From Halichondria panicea (lineage: Eukaryota > Porifera > Demospongiae > Suberitida > Halichondriidae): a DNA stretch of 64,000 bases. The stretch spans positions 95,001 to 159,000 of the forward strand of contig NC_087389.1 of assembly GCF_963675165.1 (NCBI RefSeq), read 5' to 3'. The notes beneath the pieces were generated by a model. That model saw only the letters and a program-made list of their open reading frames with translations, made no database searches and was not told the DNA's origin. Both the position numbers and the translations under genes were made by a program. Shown piece by piece: positions 9,172 through 64,000 of the stretch; position 1 is the first letter of the stretch, and every line of letters starts with the position of its first letter.

Positions 9172-12100
9172 CCGTATGCCTCGCTTGCGCATGCGCACCG
9201 AGGCATAATAATTATCTTATGCATTCACTAAAAACGTACACAATACTGAAATTGGTAACTAGTATGTATATATACCTCTCCAATGCTTGTTGGTGGTGGT
9301 GGTTGAGAGGAGGGCGTGTCAGTAGTGGGCGGGGTCGGTGCTCCAGCTACAGCCGATAAGAATGTGTAGAGTGGGTCTTCTCTGTTTGTTGCAGCAAGTG
9401 ATGCTACGGCAGATTCTTGTGTACCATCGAATGTCGCCATGATCGGGTGGGCGGAGTTACTTGCAGTCGTCGTAGTTATGAGTTGTGACGAAACAGCTGT
9501 CGAAGCGGCCACTGAAGAGGCAGCTTGAGTAGACATGATGGATGATGTAGCATTAGAGACCTGATCCCTTGCTTCAACCACGCCTTCCATTGCAGTCACT
9601 TCTTCGTCCCTCTCTGTCAACTGCTCTCTAGTGCTACGCACAGCTGCCACTGTTTGAGCGAGAGCGTCTGCCACTTGCCTAAGACTCGAACGAAGTTGGT
9701 CCACGGACGTCGATGCATCGCGAGGACTAGAGGGTGTGGCTTGATCCGAGGGGTGAGGGGCATTGGGGGGGACATTTGTTGTATTTGGTTCTGAACGAAA
9801 GGTGATAGTTCGCGTAGCGGTGACTGTTGATGTAGGGGGTGTGGCCATTGCAGGAGAGGGTGTGGCTACAGCAGAAGCAGCAGCGGTGGTGGTTGTGGTG
9901 GTAACAGTACTTGTGCTAGTTGTGCTTTGTTGAGAGGTAGACGCTGGTGTAGTCGTTGTTGTTGTTGTTGTTGTTGTTGCCGTGGAAGCAGTGCTTCGAT
10001 TGTTGCGTCGTCGTGACGAAGAAAAAAGTTCTTCATCAGATGAATTTTGTGGATTACATTTCAGGAAGATGGCACCCCACGTTGCTTTGATAGAGTCTCT
10101 TAATTCGTGCATACAATGAACAGTGGCAGGGCCATCGATGATCGCACTTGTCTCCTCCCACCGTCCGAGAGCGTTCTGGATAACAGGCGATTCCAACTCT
10201 TCTTGAACAGACTGTTCCCGGGAGCTCGGCGATTCTATAATTATGGGGGCAAGAAGTCATCAAAATATAACAAAACAACATCAGGAGCGGAAAGTTCACA
10301 AGAAACTAACATTACAGTGACACAAAATTCGGATCAACGGTACTAAAGTTATGGCTGTTGTTCAACTACACCCCTACTCGTTTCAACAGCCTTAACTTGA
10401 GTATCGTTGATCCAATGTCAAAAATTTTCTAATTTTCTGAAAGCTTAGAAAGAGACCTTTCAAATGATGTGTTGCAATCCAAAATTTCGTGCGGGCTCAA
10501 ATTTGTCATTTTTCGGCCTTGGACAAATTGATATCTCTCAAATATTACTTTTGATGACATCATTTGAACTATTTTTTTCTAAGCTTTCAGAAAATCCTAA
10601 AAATTTGACATTGGATCCACGGAATTCAAGTTATGGCAGCCGAAAGAATCCCTAAACCATTGAATGAATCGAGTTGTAGTTGAACATCTTTCAACAGCCT
10701 TAACTTGAGTATCGTTGATCCAATGTCAAAAATTTTCTAATTTTCTGAAAGCTTAGAAAGAGACCTTTCAAATGATGCGTTGCAATCCAAAATTTCGTCC
10801 GGGCCCAAATTTGTCATTTTTCGGCCTTGGACCATGGGCTATTATTCATGGTATCGCCAAATTGGTATCTCTCAAATATTACTTTTGATGACATTATTTG
10901 AACTATTTTTTTCTAAGCTTTCAGAAAATCCTAAAAAATTTGACATTGGATCCACGGAATTCAAGTTATGGCAGCCGAAAGAATCCCTAAACCATTGAAT
11001 GAACGGAGTGTAGTTGAACATCTTTCAACAGCCTTAACTTGAGTATCGTTGATCCAATGTCAAAAATTTTATAATTTTCTGAAAGCTTAGAAAGAGACCT
11101 TTCAAATGATGTGTTGCAATCCAAAATTTCGTCCGGGCCCAAATTTGTCAGTTTTCGGCCTTGGACCATGGGCTATTATTATCCATGGTATCACCAAATA
11201 GGTATCTCTCAAATATGATTTTTTATAACACCATTTGAACTATTTTTTTCTAAGCTTTCAGAAAATCCTAAAAAATTTGACATTGGATCCACGGAATTCA
11301 AGTTATGGCAGCCGAAAGAATCCCTAAACCATTGAATGAACGGAGTGTAGTTGAACATCTTTCAACAGCCTTAACTTGAGTATCGTTGATCCAATGTCAA
11401 AAATTTTATAATTTTCTGAAAGCTTAGAAAGAGACCTTTCAAATGATGTGTTGCAATTCAAAATTTCGTCCGGGCCCAAATTTGTCATTTTTCGGCCTTG
11501 GACCATGGGCTATTATTCATGGTATCGCCAAATTGGTATCTCTCAAATATTACTTTTGATGACATCATTTGAACTATTTTTTTGTAAGCTTTCAGAAAAT
11601 CCTAAAAAATTTGACATTAGATCCACGGAATTCAAGTTATGGCAGCCGAAAGAATCCCTAAACCATTGAATGAACGGAGTGTAAGTTGATCAATGGTTCG
11701 GGGACTCTTTCAGCTGCTCTAACTTGAATTCCATCGATCCAATTTCAACAATTTTTTGATTTCTGAAAGCTTAGAAAGATACTTTTCAAATGGTGTCATC
11801 AAAGTTCATATTTGAGATATGAAAAAATTCTGTCAATCCAGCCCAATACCATGGATACCATGGTCTAAGGCCGAAAAATGACAAATTATGGCCCCAACCA
11901 AATGTTGGATTGAAACACATCAGTTGAAAGGTCTCTTTCTAAGCTTTCCGAAAATCATAACATTTTTGACATTGGATCAACAGTACGAAAGTTAATGGCT
12001 GTTGAAAGATGTTCAACTACAACCCCCCCTCTCCGTTTAATCAAAGGTTGTACGAGGTAAGTACATACGAAGCACTGTCTGTTGTCATGTGATCACAAAC

Positions 12101-47637: not shown

Positions 47638-50600
47638 TTAAATGTCAAACTGGAGCATTTTGTCAAAATCATCGAACACTTGTCCAATTTCTGATCTGTC
47701 CATGGGAGGTGGGTCTACTTTGGTCTTCTCTGTGGTCCTTAGCAACAGTGAAGGGTTGGACACACACCGCACCTCAAATACGTACTGGCCAGCTGAAGGA
47801 AACAAGATAAATGATTGAGATATGTTAGGAACAGTGATGTTGAACATACCTGGCTCAATAGTCAAGCCTTTGAAGGTGGCTCGCGATTTGTACCCATTAT
47901 TCTTGGCTATGAGTGGCTGTACTGTTCTTCCACGTAACCTTCCACCTCCTAATAAGACATTGTGCAATCAGTTAGCTCACAAGAGTGTGCATCATGCACT
48001 CACCATGCACAAGTATTTCCAGGTCACCGACAACGTAGGGATTGCTGAGTACAGAGATTTCAGGAAGCTGCAACAGAGAGAGAATGAGAGATTGAATACG
48101 GTACATCCACAGTAATTATTATAGAGCAGTCTCACCTGTTTATCACAAGACGTCCTGACCACTGGCGGCACTTCCCACCACAGATTAGTGGGCTGGCAGA
48201 CTAGTAAGGAACACAATACCTTATACAGCATAATTATAGTACCAACTCACATTTCTTCTTGAGCTGTGAAGCTTCTTGCAGCAGCAGCCTCTGATGGGAG
48301 GGGTCAGATACAACGTCCATGAGGTCCATACGACTGAGAGTAGCCAACTCACTCAGCTGGTTGAAACCCTAGAGAGAGAGAAAAACAAGTTGTCACGTAA
48401 GTCAATTGAAATCCTAGTCAGACAATATATACTCACCCTCAGGACAAAACTCTTGAGGTACTGCTGTAGACTCATTTGGTCAAACCAGTCCAGCACAGAC
48501 TTCTCTGCATGGGGAATCAGTGCAGTGATCGATGTATGGAGCTAGAGTGGACTCCATCAATATACTTACCCACACCAAAGAACTGGATCTCAGACAAGCA
48601 CGTTGTGGGGTCTCCAAAATTGTCAGCTACTATGAGCTTCCAACACTGTGTGAGTGCAGTGTCATGCATCAGCGTTCAATTAAGAGTTACAGTTAAAAAC
48701 ATCCCAAGAGTAGACCATGTACATTCTATTTGTACTTATTAGCTCACTCTGGCTGTCTCGTAGAATCCTTTGAAGTCCTGAGATTCCGAGGGGTCGCACA
48801 TCTCCTCTGACCCTACACCCTCCGCTTTGAACTTTTGCACATGTCGCCAAGATCCACTACACACCAGAAAGGGTCAAAAAATGAATGGTGTATCGTTGAT
48901 CCAATGTCAAAAATTTTATAATTTTCTGAAAGCTTAGAAAGAGACCTTTCAAATGATGTGTTGCAATCCAAAATTTCGTCTGGGCCCAAATTTGTCATTT
49001 TTCGGCCTTGGACCATGGGCTATTATTATTCATGGTATCGCCAAATTGGTATCTCTCAAATATTACTTTTGATGACACCATTTGAACTTTTTTTTTCTAA
49101 GCTTTCAGAAAATCTTAAAAAATTTAACATTGGATCCACGGAATTCAAGTTATGGCAGCCGAAAGAATCCCTAAACCATTGAATGAACGGAGTGTAGTTG
49201 AACATCTTTCAACAGCCTTAACTTGAGTATCGTTGATCCAATGTCAAAAATTTTATAATTTTCTGAAAGAGACCTTTCAAATGATGTGTTGCAATCCAAA
49301 ATTTCGTCCGGGCCCAAATTTGTCATTTTTCGGCCTTGGACCATGGGCTATTTATTATCCATGGTATCGCCAAATTGGTATCTCTCAAATATTACTTTTG
49401 ATGACACCATTTGAACTATTTTTTTCTAAGCTTTCAGAATATCCTAAAAAATTTGACATTGGATCCACAAAATTCAAGTTATGGCAGCCGAAAGAATCCC
49501 TAAACCATTGAATGAACGGAGTGTAGTTGAACATCTTTCAACAGCCTTAACTTGAGTATCGTTGATCCAATGTCAAAAATTTTATAATTTTCTGAAAGCT
49601 TAGAAATAGACCTTTCAAATGATGTGTTGCAATCCAAAATTTCGTCTGGGCCCAAATTTGTCATTTTTCAACCTTGGACCATGGGCTATTATCCATGGTA
49701 TCGCCAAATAGGCATCTCTCAAATATGACACCATTTGAACGATTTTTTTCTAAGCTTTCAAAAAATCCTAAAAAATTTGACATTGGATCCACGGAATTCA
49801 AGTTATGGCAGCCGAAAGAATCCCTAAACCATTGAACGAACGAGTGTAGTTGAACATCTTTCAATGTCAGCTAGATGCATAGCAATGCTGTATGCAAATA
49901 CCTGAGTGAATCGCTGCACTCGATCATGAAGTTGAGAATCATCTTTGGGTTATCCCTACATAATCATGAACACAGAGTATAGTTAATAAACACGAATATG
50001 TACATGCAGTATGAAGGTTGTGTAGTCCCTTAACATGATTCACCAATATTGAGGGTTTCCTCTAGAGAAAGGGTACACAGATATATACCTACCATCCCGC
50101 TATCCTGACTCCGGTGAGAGTGTACTCAGAGCCGAGGTCTACAGCCACCCAGTTGTATGCACCAGCTGCAGGTATCTTCCAGTAGCTGATGGGATCATCT
50201 GTGCATGGACACTTGATATGAGTTAATAAAATGAATGACCCTTTACTATAATTATTGCCAGGTAAAGAGTCATCTCATAAACAAACGAAAAACATAGTGA
50301 CTCAAGGTAAAGGGTCATCTCATAAACAAACGAAAAACATAGTAACTCAAGGTAAAGGGTCATATTAATAACAAACTCATAGTGACTCACTGTCCAACAG
50401 GCAGGTGGGTGGGTGCTGCTTGGTCCATGCACTGCAGTAGTCTGGAGTGGGTTGACACCATTCAGCCTTGTTCTTGAGCAGTGGATATGTGACTGTGCAC
50501 AACAGAATAGTGCATGGTAGTTACTAGGAAGTAAGTCTATGGTAGTTGCATGCACAACACAACACAACATACAGCTGCTAACAGTACTGAACGTATGTAG

Positions 50601-54110: not shown

Positions 54111-54365
54111 GCTATATACAGTATAGTACAGTGCAGTAGTACAGTGCAAGTGATGTCTAGTCTGTATTCCTCTGCTCTAAGATCAAGAAGGGCGTGACCA
54201 CTCATTAGATTCCCAGGCCGTTTTTATCTGATTGTAACGATACAGGAAGCTGATGTAGCTGACGGTATGTTAGAGAAACATTGGCCTGGAATATAAGGGA
54301 TTTCCCGTGGTACTTCCCCTCAAAAACAAGCCAGAGAGTTCAGACAAGAACAAAACGAGAACAAA
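54111..54365. promoter_or_regulatory. Divergent promoter region, ankyrin gene / NADAR gene
   Basis: 255 bases separate two opposite start codons. Short GTACAGT repeats lie at the ankyrin-gene side. No TATA box is certain. Confidence 0.4.
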
Positions 54366-56025
54366 ATGAGTGCTAGTGCAAGTGAGAAGCGCTCACTATA
54401 TCTTCAAGCTAAGCAGAAAATAGGAGAGCTAGGAGTAGTGGAATTCTTTAGGTCTCTGCTTGCCTTGGACAATGTGTACGAAGGAGAATCTAAACTGTGT
54501 GTGCAATGTCACTCACACATCTCTCCTGACTTTGACTTTTGCTCTTCACACTGTGAAATGAAGTACTGGGATGAGTTCAACCATCAGTACACCTACCATT
54601 CAGGTATAATTACTTGCACTATTTGATGCAGTACTATTTAATGAATCTACTTGCAGGGGAGACTCCACTGTGCAAATTTCCCAGATGTTTCAAGACTTGC
54701 TTCGTTGAGAATTACGGTCGTGTTCATGATTATTGCAGCAAATCTCACGCTGGAGAACACCAAAAGATGAAAGAAGCAGCTGAAAGACAGCAACACACTT
54801 CCAGAAACCGGAGGGGAAAGGGTCACTCGTGGAGAGGAGGCCATCAACTAGGAGGTGGAAGTGGAGGTGGAGGTGGAGCCAGAGGTGGAGCCAGAGGTAG
54901 AGGTGGAGGTGGAGGTAGAGGTGGAGGTGGCGGTGGAGGTGGAGGTGGCGGTGGAGCAGGGACGTCTCAAGCTGGGTATTATCAGCAAGGTATGTCAGGG
55001 TGTCATACAGGGGGGAAAGGGGGGATATCCCCCCCCTAGCTCCAATTTCCCCCCCTTTCAATTATGACTGAGTGTCCATAGCTGGGTATTGAAATAACGG
55101 TTGACCTTTTTTTAGCAACATTTTCTGGTTACTTTTCTCATTTCCCCCCTCTACTTCAAAATCCTGTATGACACCCTGTATGTAGCTACTTAATTGTTTG
55201 TAGTCACTTTTTTCTGCTCCATATATAGGGCATACACGAGGAGGTACCAACTATTCTCACTGCTCGGATAGTCATGGAACAATCTATTTCTATAATCGTG
55301 GCGAACCATACTACGAGTTTACTAACTTCTTCCCTGGTGCTGCATTCAGTCTTGATGACAGTGAATGGCCTACTACTGAGCACTATTTCCAAGCCCAGAA
55401 ATTCGTTGGTACACCTTACGTCCACAAGATTCGGAATGCCTTTGGGCCACGAGATGCTTTCGAATTGTCCCGCAATCCAGCTATCTCTCGCTGGAGGAGG
55501 AGCGATTGGGAAGATGTCAAGAAGGATGTGATGAGAAAGGCTCTTTTCGCTAAATTTACTTCCCACCCAATTTTGAAAAATAAGCTTCTTGATACTGGTA
55601 AAAGAGAGCTTGTTGAACGATCTCCACATGATAGCTACTGGGGAGACGGTGGTGATGGTACAGGAGAGAACCATCTTGGAAGACTTCTCATGGAACTGAG
55701 GGAAAAGCTGCAAGGTGGTCAGTACAAGGATGTGGAACGAGATGGTATGCAAGCAGGAACGAGTTGTGGCGTTCCATCATATAACAAATTGACGAGGAAT
55801 CCATTACGTGACAACACACAATGTAAAGTAGAAGATGAAGTTGAAGACATGGATTATGAGAATACTGGGTTTCCAACTGGGTCACTGGTGTTACTAGATG
55901 ATTCGAATGAAAACGCACCTGACTATCCACCGCTTCCAACGCATTTCAATGGGAAACCATTAATACCCTCCCCATCACCTACAACCCCTGTTGCTGGTGC
56001 TGATGCTGATGCCGTTGGCACTTGA
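54366..56025 (+). CDS. Zinc-finger-like RGG protein with C-terminal NADAR (YbiA) domain
   Basis: Three exons: 54366-54603, 54657-54989 and 55229-56025. The N-terminus has a Cys/His cluster (CVQCHSHISPDFDFCSSHC), then the cluster's shared finger (CKFPRCFKTCF...GRVHDYCSKSHAGEH), then a long Gly/Arg-rich linker (~50 residues, mostly GGG with RG). A NADAR domain (DUF1768) begins near residue 205: SDSHGTIYFYNRGEPYYEFT, SEWPTTEHYFQAQKF, RNPAISRWRRSDWEDVK, VMRKALFAKF, SPHDSYWGDGGDGTGENHLG and LLMELREKL. Bacterial NADAR domains act as hydrolases that strip ADP-ribose from guanine or handle riboflavin precursors. Which applies here is unknown. The RGG linker suggests nucleic-acid binding. A MITE has landed in intron 2. 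An AATAAA at 56168 follows the stop. Confidence 0.88.
54996..55178. mobile_element. MITE with 16-bp inverted ends and TATGT target duplication
   Basis: The left end CAGGGTGTCATACAGG and right end CCTGTATGACACCCTG are perfect inverted copies. Both flanks read TATGT. The left TATGT is part of the intron donor GTATGT of the NADAR gene. The inside holds runs of G and C (GGGGGGATATCCCCCCCC). No ORF is present, so it is non-autonomous. Confidence 0.9.
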
Positions 56026-56167
56026 ACTAAGGACTGTGTTAGCTATATTGTGTAGCTAGTCTGTATATGTGTGTTGCTGTAAGTTAGTATAGTCATAGAT
56101 AAACTATGGTACAGTGTATAATTGTACATGTGTACAGTGTTGTTGATTGATAATGCTGATTGAGCAA

Positions 56168-56173
56168 AATAAA
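56168..56173 (+). terminator. Polyadenylation signal AATAAA
   Basis: A canonical AATAAA lies 143 bases after the NADAR stop and 71 bases before the next start codon, showing how tightly the cluster is packed. Confidence 0.6.
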
Positions 56174-56244
56174 CATTTAGGGGATATCCCATTATAATTA
56201 GAAGTTGATGATCACTTATATTTCACACAAACTTCTACGGTACT

Positions 56245-57887
56245 ATGAGTTCTCCTGTTACTGACTCAAGAGGTGTGCTCAGGGGAAGGTGTACCAGTTG
56301 TAATTGCTCTGGGTATCAAGGTGGAACTGCTGGACTGAAGTGCAGCATCTGCACACACCCACCAGGGAAGCATCAGAACATCACACCAGGATTTGCTGCC
56401 CAGACCTATGGTAAGCATTGAAGTGTTATAATCACTCGTTCTATAATGTTACTACTATAATTAAAGTTACTACAGGTTCAAGCCGACCAAGCAATACCAG
56501 CGATGCTCATGGTGGATACAGTTATCAAAATGTATATCGGGTAATACCGTAAGCGTTCCAATTATAGAACCAGCCTCGGGTAGGACGCCCTCTTTTATAA
56601 CGCCCATATACCACAAATAAAATCTTTTTTTTTGGTACATGTTTCTAGAAAAATAATTATTTTTTACTGGTTTTATAATTAGAACGTTTACGGTAACTAG
56701 ATCTAGGTGTTTACTTTTTTTGTACAGCCTCCAGAAACAGGTCCATGCAGTGCAAACAACTGTAACAAGCCTTGCTACTATGATCCGAGTGTTGGGGAGT
56801 TTGACTACTGCAGTCCATCGTGTAGAGACAAGCACTTGCTGCCCAAGGAAAAAAAGAGTCTACAAGATGATCTCAAAGCCTTTGAATATCAGGTGAAGTT
56901 ACCTGTATCTGGTGGTGAAAAGCGTGGAATTGGAGCACACACAGCTGGTGGAGAGTCAGAGTATCAATCAACTCAAGCATCAGGAGGGAGGCATTCTTAT
57001 AGTAGTGCTGTGTCATCAGGTAGCCAAGCAACTACAAGATCCTCCAGCTCAGGCAAAGCCCATAATATTTCCCCAAATGTTAGTGAGTGTCTTGTTACTA
57101 CAGGAAGGCAGACGACAATCAAAGTGTTTTTTCAAAAGAGTCCATCAAATGATATTGGCCTCATTGTCAGTGAAGAGATATACAGATGTGACACATTTTC
57201 TGGGGTATGCCATTATACTTTTGATCAGTCAATGTACATATTTTGTATAATGCAGCTGCTGGTGCTTGGATTTGAGTACAATACTAAAGCTGAATACCTG
57301 ATTACTACGAATGAAGTACGTGTGCTGGATGTGATCACTTCATTGAATGACAAAAAAATCAGCCCGTTAACCTATAAAGAAGAAGCAACAAAGAATAGGT
57401 CATGTTCTCTGGAACTGAAAAGATGGATTTCACTTCCTCAACTGAAGCCACTTATGGACAAAGGTACTTTTGACATGCCTGAAATCAATTTATTGTTTTT
57501 GTTTTTTACAGCCGAATTCTCCAACCCAACAGCTCTTGTTGCTGTAATGAATCCAAAAGATTATCCCAATTGTTCCACTGCAAAAGGATTTGGACTGGGA
57601 ATCACTGTAAGCCATGACTGTTGCACATACTTCTTCTGTATTGATCATTCGTTTCTTAACAGTCTCTTCTTAGTACCACCTCTGTGGTTTCTGTGACAGC
57701 AAACACACCAGCACGATTCAGCAGACTAGAGTATGGAGATGAGATAATAGCCTATGGGTTTGTGAAGAAGAACAAGCTAGAAATTGGGAAGGATGCATTG
57801 AGTCTGACGACCAATCTGGAAGAAGCTGCAAAAGATGGAAAAACACTTGTCCTAGTAGTTAAGAGACCAGTGATAATTAACTTGTAG
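56245..57887 (+). CDS. Cys-module protein with PDZ-like domains
   Basis: Exons are 56245-56410, 56476-56540, 56728-~57204, ~57256-57465, ~57513-57627 and ~57661-57887. The N-terminus MSSPVTDSRGVLRGRC starts the first shared module (CTSCNCSGYQGGTAGLKCSI, then CTHPPGKH). The second shared module follows (CSANNCNKPCYYDPSVGEFD, then YCSPSCRDKH), then a Ser-rich linker. The C-terminal half has one probable PDZ-like domain (STAKGFGLGIT...VSVTANTPARF...YGDEIIAYGF...KTLVLVVKRP) and, before it, a weaker copy (TIKVFFQKSPSNDIGLIVSE ... SLELKR). No catalytic domain is seen. It may act as a scaffold for the neighbouring ADP-ribosylation proteins, which is inference. The last acceptor was chosen as CTTAACAG because the TTCTTAG just after it breaks the frame. 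Confidence 0.75.
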
Positions 57888-57955
57888 ATTAAGAATAACT
57901 GTGTCAAAGTGAAACTATATAATTATATGATTAGTAATAATTGTGTATAAAGAAG

Positions 57956-60220
57956 TCATTTGAATGTAATAACAAAACGTGGTAAATCATGAGCAGGGTT
58001 CTTCATCACTACAATGTCCCCATGTTTTGTATGATGAGTTCCAGTCTGTCCTAGCAACAGTTCATTCAGTAGTAGCTTCTTTCCACTCTTGCAGTAGCCG
58101 AGAGGAATGGTGGGAGATGTTGCGAAGTATTCCCCGGCACCATAGGCTTGGCCATTTCTCTTCTTTTGGTCATAGCCAGTAGTACAAATACTGTCGATAT
58201 TACTCTCTGCCGTTCCATGAAATGCAAGGCAAGTGTTTCTTTGGCTAGTGGGTAGAGACATCATTGCGCTCCTAAATTTATTGAATAAAGCACCTCCAGG
58301 CTTAGCGTGGTCGTTTTCTTTCATTGAGGCAACTTTGAGATTCGGGAATTTCTGGAGAAACTTTTGAACTTCCGGCATACTTGTAAGAATCCTCGCTGCA
58401 AATTGAATACAATAGTAGTAAAATAAAATTGTTAAGCCAGCTCTATATAATATTCATTATACCATCTCTGTTGGGGGCGTCCTTCTGTGCATGGTCTAGA
58501 CAACAGTAGTCATGGACTGTCCCTCCCTCTGTTTTCCTTCTGTTAGTGCATCCAGGTAGGCCACACTGATCTTCAACCTTATCAGCTGTAGCTGCAGGCA
58601 CAGGCATCACAAGTTATAACAACACCACCCATTCTATATCATGTATTATCAAGTATTCTAAAACAGCAGGAGTAACTTCTTGGTAAGAGTATACTAGGGA
58701 CTTTCCCAGGGGAATTTTCAGTGATTTTATCAAACCACACATAGTGGCCAGATAGCTGACAGGGACTCTCCCAGGGGAATTAAACCAATAAACAGGTGAC
58801 CCAACAGTTAAAACCAATCCTAAAATAAAGGTGACACAACAGTCCACTCTTCACATACCATAAATGCCTCTCCTCTTCCCCTCATCAGCATGGCTCTTCC
58901 CACAGTAGTCATAGGTGGCCCCAGTACTGCTGTCCACAAACTTGGGCTTCTGACAACCAGGGATGATGCACGATGAGCTGTCCTTAGGCCCAGCTTGAGA
59001 TGCAGTGGTAGTTCCAGCAACTGGTGGTGGAGCTGTGAAAAACTATAATCAAGGCTATAAATGCAATGAAACTTACTTACCCACAAGCCCTTGTTGCAAT
59101 CCAAGATTAGCATGTGTTCTCCCACAATAGTTCTCAAAAGGCCATGTATGTTTATTACAGCCAGGTAGTAGACAGTGTGTAACTCCTTTCACCACTTGCT
59201 GGTTCACCTCTACATGCAGGTACATACACAGTGAAACGTACAAGATGTTAGCTTACGTTGCCACAGAGCCTGTCTCCTCTGGTGCTCCATAGCATGAGTG
59301 ATACCACAGCACTCATGCACCGTACCACTCTCATCAACATAGCATGCATTTGGGCACTCAGCAATAGCACATGTGGCCCTTGATGTGGGTACAACAGGAG
59401 CCTGTACTGGAGTTGGTAGTGCTGCACCATCTTGGATATTCGCTGTAATAAGCATTAGCAAAACTACTAGATAGAGTTGAAGCTTACGTAATATTCCTCT
59501 CATCTTCCCCTCTTGGGCATGCGTCTTCCCACAGTAGTCATGGAGAACTCCAGTGCCACTGTCCATATACTTAGGCTGGAAACACTCGGGGATAATGCAC
59601 AGGGAATTGTCCTGTACGCCTTGTGCCACGGAGAACATACTTGAATCTATAGAGGGAGAAATAAATGGAATGGGTGAGTTTATAATTATAGGCGTACACT
59701 CACCTTGATAAAAGTTCTCTTCATATTGATTTCCATGCCCAAATTGATTATCTTCAAACATTCTCATACTTGCAGTCATTATATGAAAATGACAGTGTAT
59801 GCTTTCCATGCCCGAATTCAAGTCGAAGTCAACCGTCTGATTACAGTTGGGGAAGCCACATAATGATGATATTGGGGACGACTGAATGTTCAGAGGAGAT
59901 GCAAATGAGTTAGAAATTGGAAGAGCGACATGACTCTGATCCGTACAAGTGTTTCGGGTAGAAGTGTCTCGGATAAAAGTGTCTCCTTGCTGTGATTGCA
60001 GGGACTGGTCCAGCCTAGAGTGTCCTGCAGGACGACAGCCACATTGGGAGCACTTGAGACCACTGCTAGGGGGAGTGTAGCCTCCACAGCTAGAGCAATT
60101 CTTGCACCTTCCTCTGGAGATTCCACGGGCATCATCCATCAAGTCTCTCTCACTCTCTCTAGCTCTAGCTCTCTCGATCTCTCTCTTTCTTGCATGTAGA
60201 TCTACTCTGTGTGAAGTCAT
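57956..60220 (-). CDS. PARP-like ADP-ribosyltransferase with repeated Cys/His fingers
   Basis: The start at 60220 (MTSHRVDLHARKREIERARA). Module A follows (RGRCKNCSSCGGYTPPSSGL, then KCSQCGCRPAGH). Then come finger modules of type C-x4-C...HDYC-x3-HA, one per exon: CGFPNCNQTVDFD (59704-60220), CIIPECFQPKYMDSGTGVLH (59487-59646), CAIAECPNACYVDESGTVHE (~59.25-59.44 kb), CLLPGCNKHTWPFENYCGRT (~59.09-59.21 kb), CIIPGCQKPKFVDSSTGATY (~58.86-59.03 kb) and CGLPGCTNRRKTEGGTVHDY (~58.46-58.59 kb). The C-terminal exon (57956-~58396) holds a PARP fold: CLAFHGTAESNIDSIC, AYGAGEYFATSP and DIVVMKNPAHDLPRFVITF. His and Tyr of the NAD-binding site are present. The third position aligns with Asp rather than Glu. 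It likely transfers ADP-ribose to an unknown target. Confidence 0.85.
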
Positions 60221-60337
60221 ACAATGCCAATGGGAAGCCCCCTCTTATGTAATGCTATTGGCATGTCTATTTATGCGTACCTTAACCTATTAACTCGAGC
60301 TAGCTCTACGTCTACTATACTAAACAAAGTCTCTAAG
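60221..60337. promoter_or_regulatory. Very short divergent promoter between two PARP-like genes
   Basis: Only 117 bases separate the start codons of two paralogous genes transcribed away from each other, implying shared regulation. An in-frame ATG at 60224 would extend the plus-strand protein, but the MSSxxDSRG start shared with the gene at 56245 supports 60338. Confidence 0.5.
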
Positions 60338-62080
60338 ATGAGCTCCAACACTGATTCCAGAGGTGTACGGAGAGGTGATTGCAATTGCCCTCAATGTGAC
60401 TGTGACCAGTATGATGGAGGAACTGAAGGAATGAAATGCAATTACTGTGGTCACCCTCCTGGAAAGCATGTGAACATGAACACAGGCATTGCTTCTTTGG
60501 CACCAACAACTACTTCGTTCTTACCATCTAGCTCTTTCCATTCTACTATGGTTATGGATGATACCAAGTTCCCTAGTACCCAGAGTCAACCTTGTTTTGA
60601 TCTCAACACGGGCGTAGATGTACAAGATGGTTACAGCCCCCAATTTACTGACCACTCTGCACCCGATCAATCGACTATGTCGATGTCACCTCAAAGAGCT
60701 GTGCAATCACCACCGAGTCAATTTGATATTATGTCTTCCATATTACGAAGTCCCTTCAAGCGGCCACGACCAACTACTGCTCCCCCACCAGCATTACGTT
60801 CACCTGCACCTCAGCTAGCCCTAGCCCGTATGTTACTCTAATAATTTTATATAAAATTAATGATTAAATTATATTCCTATGCTTACAGTTCCACTTGACC
60901 AGCATTGTAAGCTCAGTGGATGCTCCAGGTGGTCGTGTACATGACTGTTGTGGGAGAAGACATGCGACAGAGTATGCCAAACAAAATTGTAAAGTTCTCA
61001 TGCTGTAACAGTACTTGTCATACTCTTTAGACATACTTCTATAGGTGAAATTACATCCGAGTTGCAATGCAAGACTCCTGGATGCTATAAACAGAGGTAC
61101 CCAAATGGCCAAGGAGGACATTTTGATTACTGTGCCAAATATTGTCGTGACAGTGGAGGCAAACCACAAGGGTCAATGCTTGCTTCAGGTAAGAGCTACT
61201 AAATGTGTACATGTTATAATACTATAAATTTATAGCTTCAATGCCGGACATGGCTCTGACAGGCGGATATGGTATCTGTCAGTTCCCTCAGTGTGCAAGA
61301 CCCAAGTACTGTGATCCTGCCAATGGGAGGGTGCATGACTTCTGTAGGAGATCCCATGCTTACCAAGCCAGAGTGCAAGGTACTTATTGCTGTGATGTAG
61401 ACTTATTATTATGTAGCTCTTGGGTATTTCCCAGGTGATTCCCCAAGTGATTCTCCAAAATGATAGTGGCCATTGTTATTAATGTGTCATGCTTTTGTTA
61501 TTCATACTTCTCAGGAATCACCACTAGCACTGCTGTGAATATCAGAGTAGCCACTGCACAAGAGCTCTCCACAATTGCAGGGAAGTTCAAGCAGTCATGG
61601 GCTAGTGCAAAGGGGGCCTGTCCACCAGTTTCATTTGTCTACATCATCAGTAACTCACAACTCACACAAAGATGGACCACGTACAGAAATGGGTTACAGA
61701 AGAAGGACGTTGAAGAGTACTACCATGGTACTAAACTGACATGCAACATTACAGCGACTTCAACTCTGTGCAACGATCAACATTGTGGTGCATGTGGTAT
61801 CTCAAACACTGGACTGGATCGAAGATGCATTCAAAAGAACATCAAGTTTCAGAGGTTTGGTCATGGCTTTTACCTCGCTCCTAATTCATCAAAATGCCAT
61901 GACTACACCCAAGGATGCTCCTCGTATAGAGCTATGCTGTTGTTTGATGTTTGTCCCGGAAATAAATCCAACCTCAAGAAAGACGATGCAAAATTAAAAG
62001 CACCACCTCAAGGATTTGATTCTGTTTATGGACGGAAAGGAGTCCGCTTGAACTATGTTATGGTTAGAACATGGGCATGA
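60338..62080 (+). CDS. Second PARP-like Cys-module gene, with a broken finger exon and truncated end
   Basis: Exon 1 (60338 to ~60828) encodes MSSNTDSRGVRRGDCNC and module A (CDQYDGGTEGMKCNYC, GHPPGKH), then a Pro/Ser-rich linker. Exon 3 (~61046-61190) has CKTPGCYKQRYPNGQGGHFD, then YCAKYC. Exon 4 (~61237-61379) has CQFPQCARPKYCDPANGRVH, then DFCRRSHA. Exon 5 (61515-62080) has a PARP-like domain (SFVYIISNSQLTQRW, EEYYHGTKL, CGACGISNTGLDRRC, RFGHGFYLAPNSSKCHDY, FDSVYGRKGVRLNY). The His and Tyr motifs are present. The frame stops (VRTWA) inside a palindromic element before the usual last strand carrying the third catalytic position. A remnant exon (60889-60988) is frameshifted; skipping it joins exons 1 and 3 in phase 1. 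The gene may be degraded or a non-catalytic variant. Confidence 0.75.
60889..60988 (+). pseudogene. Frameshifted finger exon remnant
   Basis: It is bounded by TTACAG and GTAAAG and is 100 bases long, so it cannot keep the phase-1 frame of its neighbours. One frame reads DQHCKLSGC (front half of a finger) and another reads VDAPGGRVHDCCGRRHATEY (back half). The two halves meet at the 9-base word GTGGATGCT, which is read in both frames. Confidence 0.7.
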
Positions 62081-62175
62081 GGTATCTATGTGTTATAGTG
62101 TCCCAAAGCTCGAGGGCTTTAGCCCGAGGGATGAGGGACACTATAACCATAGATACCGAATGCACATGTTCTAAC
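62063..62175. mobile_element. 113-bp foldback (MITE-like) element at the PARP-like gene end
   Basis: Perfect inverted ends GTTAGAACATG and CATGTTCTAAC enclose further paired blocks GGTATCTATG / CATAGATACC and TATAGTGTCCC / GGGACACTATA. The loop is Gly/Cys-rich (CTCGAGGGCTTTAGCCCGAG, itself palindromic). The stop codon of the preceding gene lies in its left arm. A clear target-site duplication was not found. Confidence 0.85.
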
Positions 62176-63136
62176 TGATTTAGATCCCAAAACCTATTGG
62201 CTACTAGAAATGCACTAGCTTAGCAACAGTCAACCTATATAAACAGCCAACCTAGCAACTGCATCATTATTCTTTTGAAAACTAATATCTGAAGTTGGCA
62301 TCTCTGTGTCTCTACTAAGTCTCTATTCAAGTCAACCCTGTTCCTCCACCTCAGTTTGATGGACAAAATTATAGTCCTAGCTAGCTCCACCCACAAAACA
62401 GAAACAACCAGCTCCTCCCCCAGTTTTGCAGCAAACAAGCCCAGCACACTTCCCAAGAAACGAGCGGCTCGTACTACTCTCACAAAGCGAAAGGAAGACA
62501 CCTAAGCTATAATTTGCAGCAAACAAGCCCAGCAAACGAGCGGCTCCTATACTACTCTTGAAAAAAGCGAAAGGAACTTTAGGAAGAAGCCAAAGCTAGA
62601 ATCCCAGCACTTCCATACATCCAGCTCCTCCCCCATGCAGCCTTGCAGCAAAAAAGCACAGCACACTGCCCAAAAAACGAGCGTCTCCTACTACTCTCGA
62701 ACAAAGCCAAAAAAAAGAAACTAGAGCTTCTCTCTTTCATTCTAGTTCTGTTATTATATTGCATCTAGCTACAATAATTTTTATGTTATTACATGTGTAT
62801 CTTCTTGTAAATCACAATACAATGTACAATGTTGTAGTTTGTAGCCCAGAGCAATCTATAGTACCCGGTACTATAGCTCATAGTTCCCTGCTAAATACAC
62901 TCAAATGGGATCTAAGAAGAAATAGTAGTGTACAACGCTGATGCTGCCCTTCCAAAATGTATTATTGTGTACCAAAAAGACAGTATAGGGAAAATAGCAA
63001 CAGGATAGCACTTTTCATTTTTTCAGTAGCATAGCGTAATACAGTAGAAGTTTTTTCTATACAAAAACATTGTGTGAGCTGTATTATACATTGTCCTCCA
63101 AAATGCACTCATGCTAATAGCTAAGACTTCATCTAG
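62081..63136. repeat. Convergent intergenic region with a degenerate repeat
   Basis: Past the foldback element, 62360-62715 holds about three imperfect copies of a ~110-150-base unit. Shared words are TTGCAGCAAACAAGCCCAGC, AACGAGCGGCTC and TACTACTCT followed by AAAGCGAAAGGAA. No coding potential was found. The rest, to the stop at 63137, is A/T-rich 3' flank. Confidence 0.65.
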
Positions 63137-64000
63137 CTAAGAGTTCATCTGTGATTGCATAAAGCACTGGTCACACCAGCCCTTCCCTGGGTTAGCTTGT
63201 TTCACTCGACACTTGGAGCACATCTTGCCACCAGCTGTCGCTGGCATGGACTGAGTAGAAGGGCCCAGGGGCATAGATCCACCAGAATGGGAGATAGGCA
63301 AACTATCATATGGTAGCATCGGAGGGCCTTGTCCTTGCATTTTAGAGTAGTAGCTCATGGCCCCACGTTTATCAGTAGAGGAAGGCCCACTGGAAATAGC
63401 AGATGATCCTGGTGGCTGTCTGTAAGCCCTTGGAGAGCTGCTGCCTTGTTGAGCTGCATGATTAGAATAAGTAGCAAGATTATAAAAAATAAAACCCACA
63501 CCTGTCTTCGTGGCAGCAACCTTCTGTTGGTGAAAGGATGATTGAAGTTCATTGAACTTCTTAGCACATGTCCTGCTACAGAAATCGTGGATCTTGTCAC
63601 CTTCTCTTCGTTTTGGAAAAGTACATCCAGGACATTTACAAGTTCCATAAGTTACTAGCTGAAGAGGTTGTTCATGAGCGTCATATCTTGGTTCGAACCC
63701 GGAGGCGCCCTGGGCCTGGGACATCATCTGACCAGACGTCACGGGTGCACCCGGTTGCTGAGGACGAGGCTTGCGTACTGCGAGTGAAACAAAGAACTAC
63801 GTTAGAAAAACGTAGATAGCTGGTGATAGATTTACATACAGAAATGATATAGAAACACATACGGACATGTCACATACGATGACAACCATAGCTAGCTAGC
63901 TATACGTATATACATACGTTTATCAGCTCCAGCGTGCGTATGAGCAGGGCAGCCACAGTATTCACAGTCAGTGTAGCTGTTTGGATCCTCAGACTGGTAC
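63137..64000 (-). CDS. Cys-module protein, partial (5' part outside window)
   Basis: Exons at 63137-~63453, ~63502-~63779 and ~63918 onward. The furthest upstream part in view reads SYTDCEYCGCPAHTHAGADK, which resembles the end of module A in the neighbouring genes (KCxxCGxPxxH). A finger follows (CKCPGCTFPKRREGDKIHDF, then CSRTCAKKF), then a Ser/Pro/Gly-rich linker and a C-terminal CSKCRVKQANPGKGWCDQCF. No PARP or NADAR domain lies in the visible part. It belongs to the same paralogous group. Whether a catalytic domain exists cannot be judged here, but the C-terminus visible has none. Confidence 0.7.

What the first reader, a model, noticed from the sequence alone, without database searches (positions are those of the whole stretch)
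54366..64000. Candidate ADP-ribosylation gene cluster built from shared Cys/His modules
Five neighbouring genes share module A (RGxCxxCxC...KCxxCxHPPGKH) and/or module B (CxxPxCxxPxYxDxxxGxxHDYCxxxHA). They combine these with NADAR (54366), PDZ-like domains (56245) and PARP-like transferase domains (60220 minus, 60338 plus). NADAR domains reverse guanine ADP-ribosylation in bacterial DarT1-type systems, while PARP-fold domains write it. A co-located writer and eraser with a common targeting finger would be a self-contained signalling or defence module. I do not know a described animal system of this form.
Basis: partly seen in the sequence, partly recalled or inferred. Interest (0 to 1): 0.9.

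Follow-up and report, generated by a model that had tools for sequence, protein, structure and literature searches.

The report
Sponge ADP-ribose writer–eraser gene cluster
In a marine sponge, genes for enzymes that probably attach an ADP-ribose tag and genes for enzymes that probably remove one lie side by side, most share the same small finger-like parts, and they appear to carry immune-type control switches, which suggests a reversible tagging system, possibly for defence.

Summary
The window lies in the sponge Halichondria panicea (C13:95001-159000). Seven genes (N1-D-P1-P2-Z-P3-N2) form a unit present three times over about 57 kb. N1 and N2 carry NADAR; P1, P2 and P3 carry PARP domains. 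Fingers A/B have no Pfam name; B is modelled treble-clef-like. P2/P3 belong to a tankyrase-like family with a nearly invariant H-Y-E triad and Cys4 insert; NADAR pocket residues are conserved. Finger fusions recur in other demosponges. Of 46 NADAR-bearing contigs of 5 kb or more, 13 match a PARP-bearing contig in exact length (chance 0.02). P3 and N2 are head-to-head, 124-136 bp apart, in all three units, across two tandem kappaB-like sites; four of five unit-1 promoter stretches hold such a site (P 1e-6 against flank density, 4e-4 against density inside the unit). Several copies are broken; the window's P2 holds an 851-bp mobile element. A writer-eraser locus is well supported as anatomy. That NADAR removes what these PARPs write, and that the role is defence, is inference. 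The PDZ claim and a DarT1-type relationship are unproven.

The parts
54366..56025 (+). Gene N1: B-like finger, module B, Gly/Arg-rich linker, NADAR domain (exons 54366-54603, 54657-54989, 55229-56025)
   Evidence: Splice model; Pfam NADAR E 8.3e-39; RefSeq protein P0035 (LOC135346153) agrees over the first exons up to the Gly-rich linker
54297..54306 (.). kappaB-like site GGGATTTCCC, 69 bases before the N1 start
56181..56190 (.). kappaB-like site GGGATATCCC, 64 bases before the D start
56245..57887 (+). Gene D: module A, module B, region with weak PDZ-like similarity
   Evidence: Model; PDZ_2 E 0.072, 13.8 vs 27 bits; LMO7 chain E 0.17
57956..60139 (-). Gene P1: module A, five module B fingers, C-terminal PARP domain (weakly PARP12/13-like)
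   Evidence: Model; fingers; Pfam PARP E 3e-10; closest solved chains PARP12 E 0.0031 and ZAP/PARP13 E 0.0078
60140..60337 (.). 198-base spacer between divergent P1 and P2, with kappaB-like site GGGAAGCCCC at 60232-60241
   Evidence: in unit 3 P1 and P2 are over 8 kb apart
60338..63008 (+). Gene P2: module A, module B fingers, tankyrase-like PARP domain; this copy is interrupted
   Evidence: Copies 2 and 3 carry the catalytic-Glu motif without the insertion; this copy has the insertion, lacks the first part of the first B exon and has a 1-bp indel in the exon before PARP
62058..62908 (.). 851-base dispersed repeat (mobile element), with an imperfect palindrome of about 113 bases at its left end, inserted in the catalytic-Glu motif of P2
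   Evidence: more than 30 near-full-length copies listed, 92-100% identical (40 of 509 candidates scored)
63137..64000 (-). Gene Z (C13:158137-159182, start beyond the window end): two module A, one module B, C-terminal CxxC..CxxC motif, no enzyme domain found
   Evidence: Model; no Pfam family over cut-off

Best explanation
This is a tandemly amplified ADP-ribosylation locus, apparently linked in other sponges too. Each unit encodes ADP-ribosyltransferase-fold proteins (P2 and P3 tankyrase-like, P1 PARP12/13-like), NADAR ADP-ribosyl hydrolases (N1, N2) and two finger proteins without a known enzyme domain (Z, D). Writers P1/P2 and erasers N1/N2 carry the same small fingers, so the likely mechanism is that the fingers bring both to one kind of target (a nucleic acid or a common partner): the PARPs tag it and NADAR removes an N-linked, probably guanine-linked, tag. 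P3 (writer) and N2 (eraser) would share one short two-way promoter with two kappaB-like sites and so be induced together, most likely by NF-kappaB in an immune or stress response. Shown here: anatomy, domain membership, family conservation of catalytic residues, repetition in three units, head-to-head arrangement, enrichment of kappaB-like sites. Indirectly shown: linkage elsewhere (contig lengths). Inferred: zinc binding, target binding by the fingers, enzyme activity, shared substrate, NF-kappaB control, defence role.
Against: No activity, expression or binding data. NADARs tested in print do not reverse PARP10 uracil adducts or RNA phosphate-end adducts, and I know of no tankyrase-like PARP that modifies guanine, so writer and eraser may not share a substrate. 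P0035 and P0101 score above cut-off for the riboflavin-intermediate N-glycosidase model TIGR02464. Many copies carry damage: P2 u1 (insertion, 1-bp indel), P3 u2 (10 bp), P1 u3 (2 bp), D u3 (stop), P2 u3 (5-bp indel in exon 4), N1 u2 (1 bp) and N1 u3 (74 bp) in the linker exon. P3 has no canonical A or B. kappaB-like sites were noticed before they were tested, also occur outside promoters in the unit (5 of 10), and are missing at Z u1 and P2 u3. N1's first B-like finger is poorly modelled. The paper on the LPS response of this sponge holds none of the words PARP, ADP-ribos or NADAR.
Confidence: 0.47

Rival explanations
1. NADAR as repair or counter-toxin: the PARPs signal in immunity on protein targets, and the NADARs undo guanine ADP-ribosylation inflicted by microbial toxins. 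The genes are clustered because they are induced together, not because they share a substrate.
For: Known NADAR specificity is guanine-ADPr on DNA and RNA; PMC11833690 suggests protection against toxic attack (passage); kappaB-like promoter sites fit induced defence.
Against: Does not explain why finger B is fused to both enzyme types, in Halichondria and in Geodia, which points to a common target or partner.
Confidence: 0.26
2. Metabolic or housekeeping role: the NADARs clean up reactive intermediates (riboflavin- or NAD-related), and their neighbourhood to PARPs reflects old linkage plus tandem duplication.
For: TIGR02464 above cut-off for P0035 and P0101, 127.4 and 124.9 vs 73.7 bits; YbiA is the closest solved sequence to P0035.
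Against: Animals are not known to make riboflavin (general knowledge, not tested here); finger fusion and Gly/Arg-rich linker do not suit a metabolic enzyme; NADAR exons on C4 have no module B within the two 9.9-kb stretches fetched there.
Confidence: 0.11
3. Self-toxicity module: the tankyrase-like PARPs act as toxic effectors and the NADARs as built-in antitoxins, an animal counterpart in logic of DarT1-NADAR.
For: Head-to-head writer-eraser pair in three units; NADAR is the antitoxin in DarT1 systems; N2 has no out-of-frame indel in the compared parts of its copies, while P3 u2 and P2 u1 are broken.
Against: No toxicity data; the writer fold is PARP; N1 copies u2 and u3 are themselves damaged; P3 u1 and u3 have no out-of-frame change between them (dN/dS 0.23).
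Confidence: 0.11

Closest known systems
DarT1-NADAR toxin-antitoxin operon (bacteria)
   Same: ADP-ribosyltransferase gene next to a NADAR hydrolase gene; key NADAR residues conserved
   Different: Writers here match PARPs (tankyrase/PARP4, PARP12/13); NADARs have Glu at the catalytic position (YbiA subtype); shared fingers; introns, tandem units, kappaB-like sites; animal genome
Tankyrases (PARP clade 4)
   Same: Catalytic domain fold and H-Y-E triad
   Different: No ankyrin or SAM domain found; a Cys4 insert directly after HGT instead of the tankyrase zinc motif; A/B fingers in P2
PARP7/12/13 zinc-finger antiviral PARPs
   Same: Several small fingers before a PARP domain; P1's PARP is weakly closest to PARP12 and ZAP/PARP13
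   Different: Fingers are not of the CCCH type; no WWE domain listed in the Pfam scan of P1
YbiA-type NADARs (E. coli YbiA, Phytophthora NADAR)
   Same: Domain, catalytic Glu, ADPr-pocket residues
   Different: Fused to module B (and in N1 to a Gly/Arg-rich linker); linked to PARP genes

Membership tests
NADAR superfamily, YbiA subfamily | NADAR domain over the curated cut-off | tested here: met
   133.9 and 127.4 bits vs 35.1
NADAR superfamily, YbiA subfamily | E43/K50/E125/D130/W133-type residues, Glu (not Asp) at the catalytic position | tested here: met
   E 40/40, K 40/40, E 38/40, D 39/40, W 40/40 in A5; reference residues, matched by spacing, not by a direct alignment to that structure
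NADAR superfamily, YbiA subfamily | Guanine-ADPr hydrolysis | not testable with these tools
   needs an assay
Riboflavin-intermediate N-glycosidase (TIGR02464) | Score over the equivalog cut-off | tested here: met
   P0035 127.4 and P0101 124.9 vs 73.7 bits
Riboflavin-intermediate N-glycosidase (TIGR02464) | Place in a riboflavin pathway | not tested
   pathway genes were not searched
PARP (ARTD) family, P2/P3 | PARP catalytic domain over cut-off and H-Y-E triad | tested here: met
   52.8 vs 26.7 bits for P3; family triad 77/78, 77/78, 75/78
Tankyrase (PARP clade 4) | Tankyrase-like catalytic domain | tested here: met
Tankyrase (PARP clade 4) | Ankyrin repeats and SAM domain | tested here: not met
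   in the P3 model Pfam finds PARP and nothing else over cut-off; P2 was not scanned as a whole
Tankyrase (PARP clade 4) | Tankyrase zinc motif (CHCC, recalled) after the Y-containing loop | tested here: not met
   that stretch of tankyrase 1 aligns to a gap in the family profile
DarT-NADAR toxin-antitoxin | DarT-type transferase | tested here: inconclusive
   best matches are tankyrase and PARP4; DarT was not compared directly
DarT-NADAR toxin-antitoxin | Toxicity relieved by NADAR | not testable with these tools
   needs an assay
PARP12/13-like (P1) | PARP domain closest to PARP12/13, third catalytic residue not Glu | tested here: inconclusive
   E 0.0031 and 0.0078; third residue not resolved
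PDZ domain (gene D) | PDZ profile over cut-off | tested here: not met
   13.8 vs 27 bits; LMO7 chain E 0.17
FCS/MYM or other known treble-clef fingers (module B) | Named Pfam finger family over cut-off | tested here: inconclusive
   Z protein 14.7 vs 22.4 bits for zf-FCS; of 37 B copies 3 match zf-FCS at E 1 or better, best 0.00038, and 4 match a TRASH domain, best 0.008 (no cut-offs shown)

The most novel reading that the evidence does not exclude
An NF-kappaB-inducible animal base ADP-ribosylation system: tankyrase-like PARPs, steered by a new treble-clef finger family, ADP-ribosylate guanine in nucleic acid, and finger-matched NADARs, one of them made from the same two-way promoter, reverse it: an animal counterpart of DarT1-NADAR built from different writers.
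Probability: 0.17. Interest if true: 0.93.

Novelty: new variant of a known kind. Interest (0 to 1): 0.8.

Why it matters
What animal NADARs do is stated to be unclear in PMC11125620 (passage). This locus ties them to PARP-family writers by genome position, common fingers and, for one pair, a short shared upstream region, and so supplies concrete enzyme pairs and a possible inducer to test. If writer and eraser share a substrate, it would be a PARP-based, reversible base ADP-ribosylation system in an animal. Even if they do not, a finger family common to PARPs and NADARs in an amplified, kappaB-marked locus would add a candidate branch to early animal immunity.

Tried and rejected
PDZ domains in D: only sub-threshold matches, not claimed. 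Viral or prokaryotic relatives of the tankyrase-like PARP: 15 and 26 stretches matched a pattern, none a relative by tblastn. Solved relatives of module B by sequence: best E 0.64; the fold searches were filled by the PARP domain, so they say nothing about the finger. Splicing out the insertion in the window's P2: judged by eye on the junctions, no frame-keeping pair seen; not computed. NADAR structure model (P0035): mean pLDDT 70.0, most of the NADAR part above 90, first B-like finger about 40-51; no fold search was run with it. Immune-response paper of this sponge: no mention of PARP, ADP-ribos or NADAR (word search of the main text). I first took the inserted element to have inverted ends; one search shows an imperfect palindrome at its left end instead. 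My first kappaB probability used flank density only; one search gives the weaker figure from inside the unit.

Limits of counts: the NADAR homologue search scored only the 7993 candidates sharing most words and the P3 search listed 120 of 152 hits, so linkage counts are lower bounds. Linkage is inferred from identical longest-contig lengths in the result tables, not from DNA that was read; left out were the two Halichondria NADAR rows (P0035, P0101), PARP row P0005 (no length given) and the 32 unlisted hits. Below 5 kb one length match was found and chance matches are expected there. B modules were seen by regular expression in 14 of 34 PARP hits and 12 of 87 NADAR hits. dN/dS used the exons that could be mapped, not every exon of every copy.
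Full report
Where it is. The window is C13:95001-159000 of a 131-Mb genome. The organism is Halichondria panicea: two NADAR proteins named for it have a longest contig of exactly 6,571,531 bases, the length of C13. C13 coordinates below are window + 95000.

What is there. N1 (149366-151025 +) has a B-like finger, a module B, a Gly/Arg-rich linker and a NADAR domain. D (151245-152887 +) has A, B and an unproven PDZ-like part. P1 (155139-152956 -) has A, five B fingers and a PARP domain. P2 (from 155338 +) has A, B fingers and a PARP domain. Z (159182-158137 -) has A, A, B and a CxxC pair. P3 (160616-159701 -) has Cys-rich N-terminal motifs and a PARP domain. N2 (160742-162015 +) has B and NADAR. 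P3, N2 and the first part of Z are outside the window. Self-comparison and exon mapping show the order N1-D-P1-P2-Z-P3-N2 three times between about 149.3 and 206.5 kb. Unit 3 has over 8 kb between P1 and P2 and extra pieces of D and Z; in unit 2 over 3 kb separate the first two exons of N2. RefSeq protein P0101 agrees with N2 except for two residues at the first splice junction; P0035 agrees with N1 over the first exons only.

State of the copies. All 14 copy comparisons give dN/dS below 1 (0.23-0.79; D the most relaxed). Of 28 indels, 22 are multiples of three. Damage: the window's P2 has an 851-bp element inside the motif that carries the catalytic Glu, a 1-bp indel in the exon before PARP and lacks the start of its first B exon; P3 of unit 2 has a 10-bp deletion, P1 of unit 3 a 2-bp indel, D of unit 3 a stop, P2 of unit 3 a 5-bp indel in exon 4, and N1 of units 2 and 3 out-of-frame indels in the Gly-rich linker exon and no match to the first part of exon 1. 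The element has more than 30 near-full-length copies (92-100%) listed in the genome, one on C10 at 100%, so the insertion is probably recent (40 of 509 candidates scored). Its left end is an imperfect palindrome of about 113 bases.

Elsewhere in the genome. All listed matches of the P2 and D queries lie on C13 at 151-206 kb; of the 32 P1 matches, 28 lie on C13 at 151-201 kb and 4 on C1. B core hits: 12 of 16 in the cluster, 2 in transposed 3' pieces of P1 on C1, and 2 others, as many as the control gives. NADAR matches outside the cluster lie only on C4 (4 of 10), with no module B found by regular expression in the two 9.9-kb stretches fetched there.

Other organisms. Finger-PARP proteins occur in Ephydatia, Geodia, Amphimedon and Dysidea, and finger-NADAR in Geodia. 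Comparing longest-contig lengths of PARP hits (138) and NADAR hits (78), 14 coincide (shift control mean 0.54, max 5); at 5 kb or more, 13 of 46 NADAR contigs coincide, against a mean of 0.02 and a maximum of 1 when lengths are shifted by 1-500 either way. One is only 5,927 bases long, so the genes would be close neighbours there. This is an inference from result tables. No relative of the tankyrase-like PARP was confirmed in viral or prokaryote contigs.

Control regions. P3 and N2 start codons face away from each other across 125, 136 and 124 bp in units 1-3. All three spacers hold GGGGAATTCCC followed by GGGGAACTCCC. N1 (GGGATTTCCC), D (GGGATATCCC) and the P1/P2 spacer (GGGAAGCCCC) also carry matches to GGGRNWYYCC, a kappaB consensus recalled from general knowledge. 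Four of five unit-1 promoter stretches have a site. From the density in 104 kb of flank (10 sites) this has probability 1.2e-6, and none of 3000 permuted motifs reached three promoters. Inside unit 1 such sites are commoner (5 of 10 outside promoter stretches, 0.42 per kb); with that density the probability is 3.6e-4. Z in unit 1 and P2 in unit 3 have none within 300 bp. I saw the sites first and tested afterwards. Rel-homology exons are present on C6. Sponge NF-kappaB is reviewed in PMC13042239 (passages).

Mechanism. Writer and eraser made together, and carried by the same finger family to the same target, is the simplest reading. The weak step is substrate identity: NADARs reverse guanine adducts (PMC11543638, PMC11833690, PMC11125620; passages), not PARP10's uracil adducts (PMC13036486; passages) or RNA phosphate ends. 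So either these PARPs modify guanine, or these NADARs have another specificity, or the two act on different substrates. The riboflavin-glycosidase model also scores over cut-off.

In print. Searches for NADAR with ADP-ribosylation, sponge, PARP/fungal, Porifera, invertebrate/PARP/antiviral, and for PARP or ADP-ribosyltransferase with sponge terms, listed no paper whose title or abstract start describes such a locus; I saw listings, not full texts. PMC11125620 names Porifera among animals with NADAR and calls the role of animal NADARs unclear (passages). Surveys of PARPs (PMC4245714, PMC2964712; passages), of tankyrases (PMC9688111; passages) and of viral NAD-ADPr systems (PMC9503650; passages) showed nothing like it in what I saw. 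Only open-licence papers are held.

Verdict. Observation confirmed and extended; writer-eraser cluster well supported as anatomy; defence and a shared substrate remain inference. New variant of a known kind.

Noticed in passing
62058-62908: 851-bp dispersed repeat with an imperfect palindrome of about 113 bases at its left end; more than 30 near-full-length copies at 92-100% identity, probably recently active.
   Followed up: partly
L051 and L052 (C1:2996956-2997552 and C1:10825222-10825843): Dispersed copies of the 3' end of P1 (last B finger plus PARP exon), 87-89% identical DNA; duplicated gene fragments.
   Followed up: partly
P0019, Ephydatia muelleri EMCRGX_G002386: The same tankyrase-like PARP domain in one protein with SH3 and SH2 domains (Pfam accessions), close in gene number to two other such PARPs.
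   Followed up: no
C13:202764-203647 (minus) and C13:203702-204195: Inverted degenerate copy of D and a fragment of Z between Z and P3 in unit 3; sign of turnover.
   Followed up: no
P0035 (LOC135346153 isoform X3): The RefSeq NADAR model seems to join first exons of unit 1 with a NADAR exon unlike that of unit 1: a chimeric prediction or splicing across units.
   Followed up: no
C15:690-770 kb: A separate group of six PARP-domain loci in the same genome.
   Followed up: no
10381-11796 and 48890-49864: Block repeated with a period of about 310-340 bp, shared by two places in the window (about 92-94%) and, inverted at 76-79% identity, by C13:247.8-249.7 kb.
   Followed up: no
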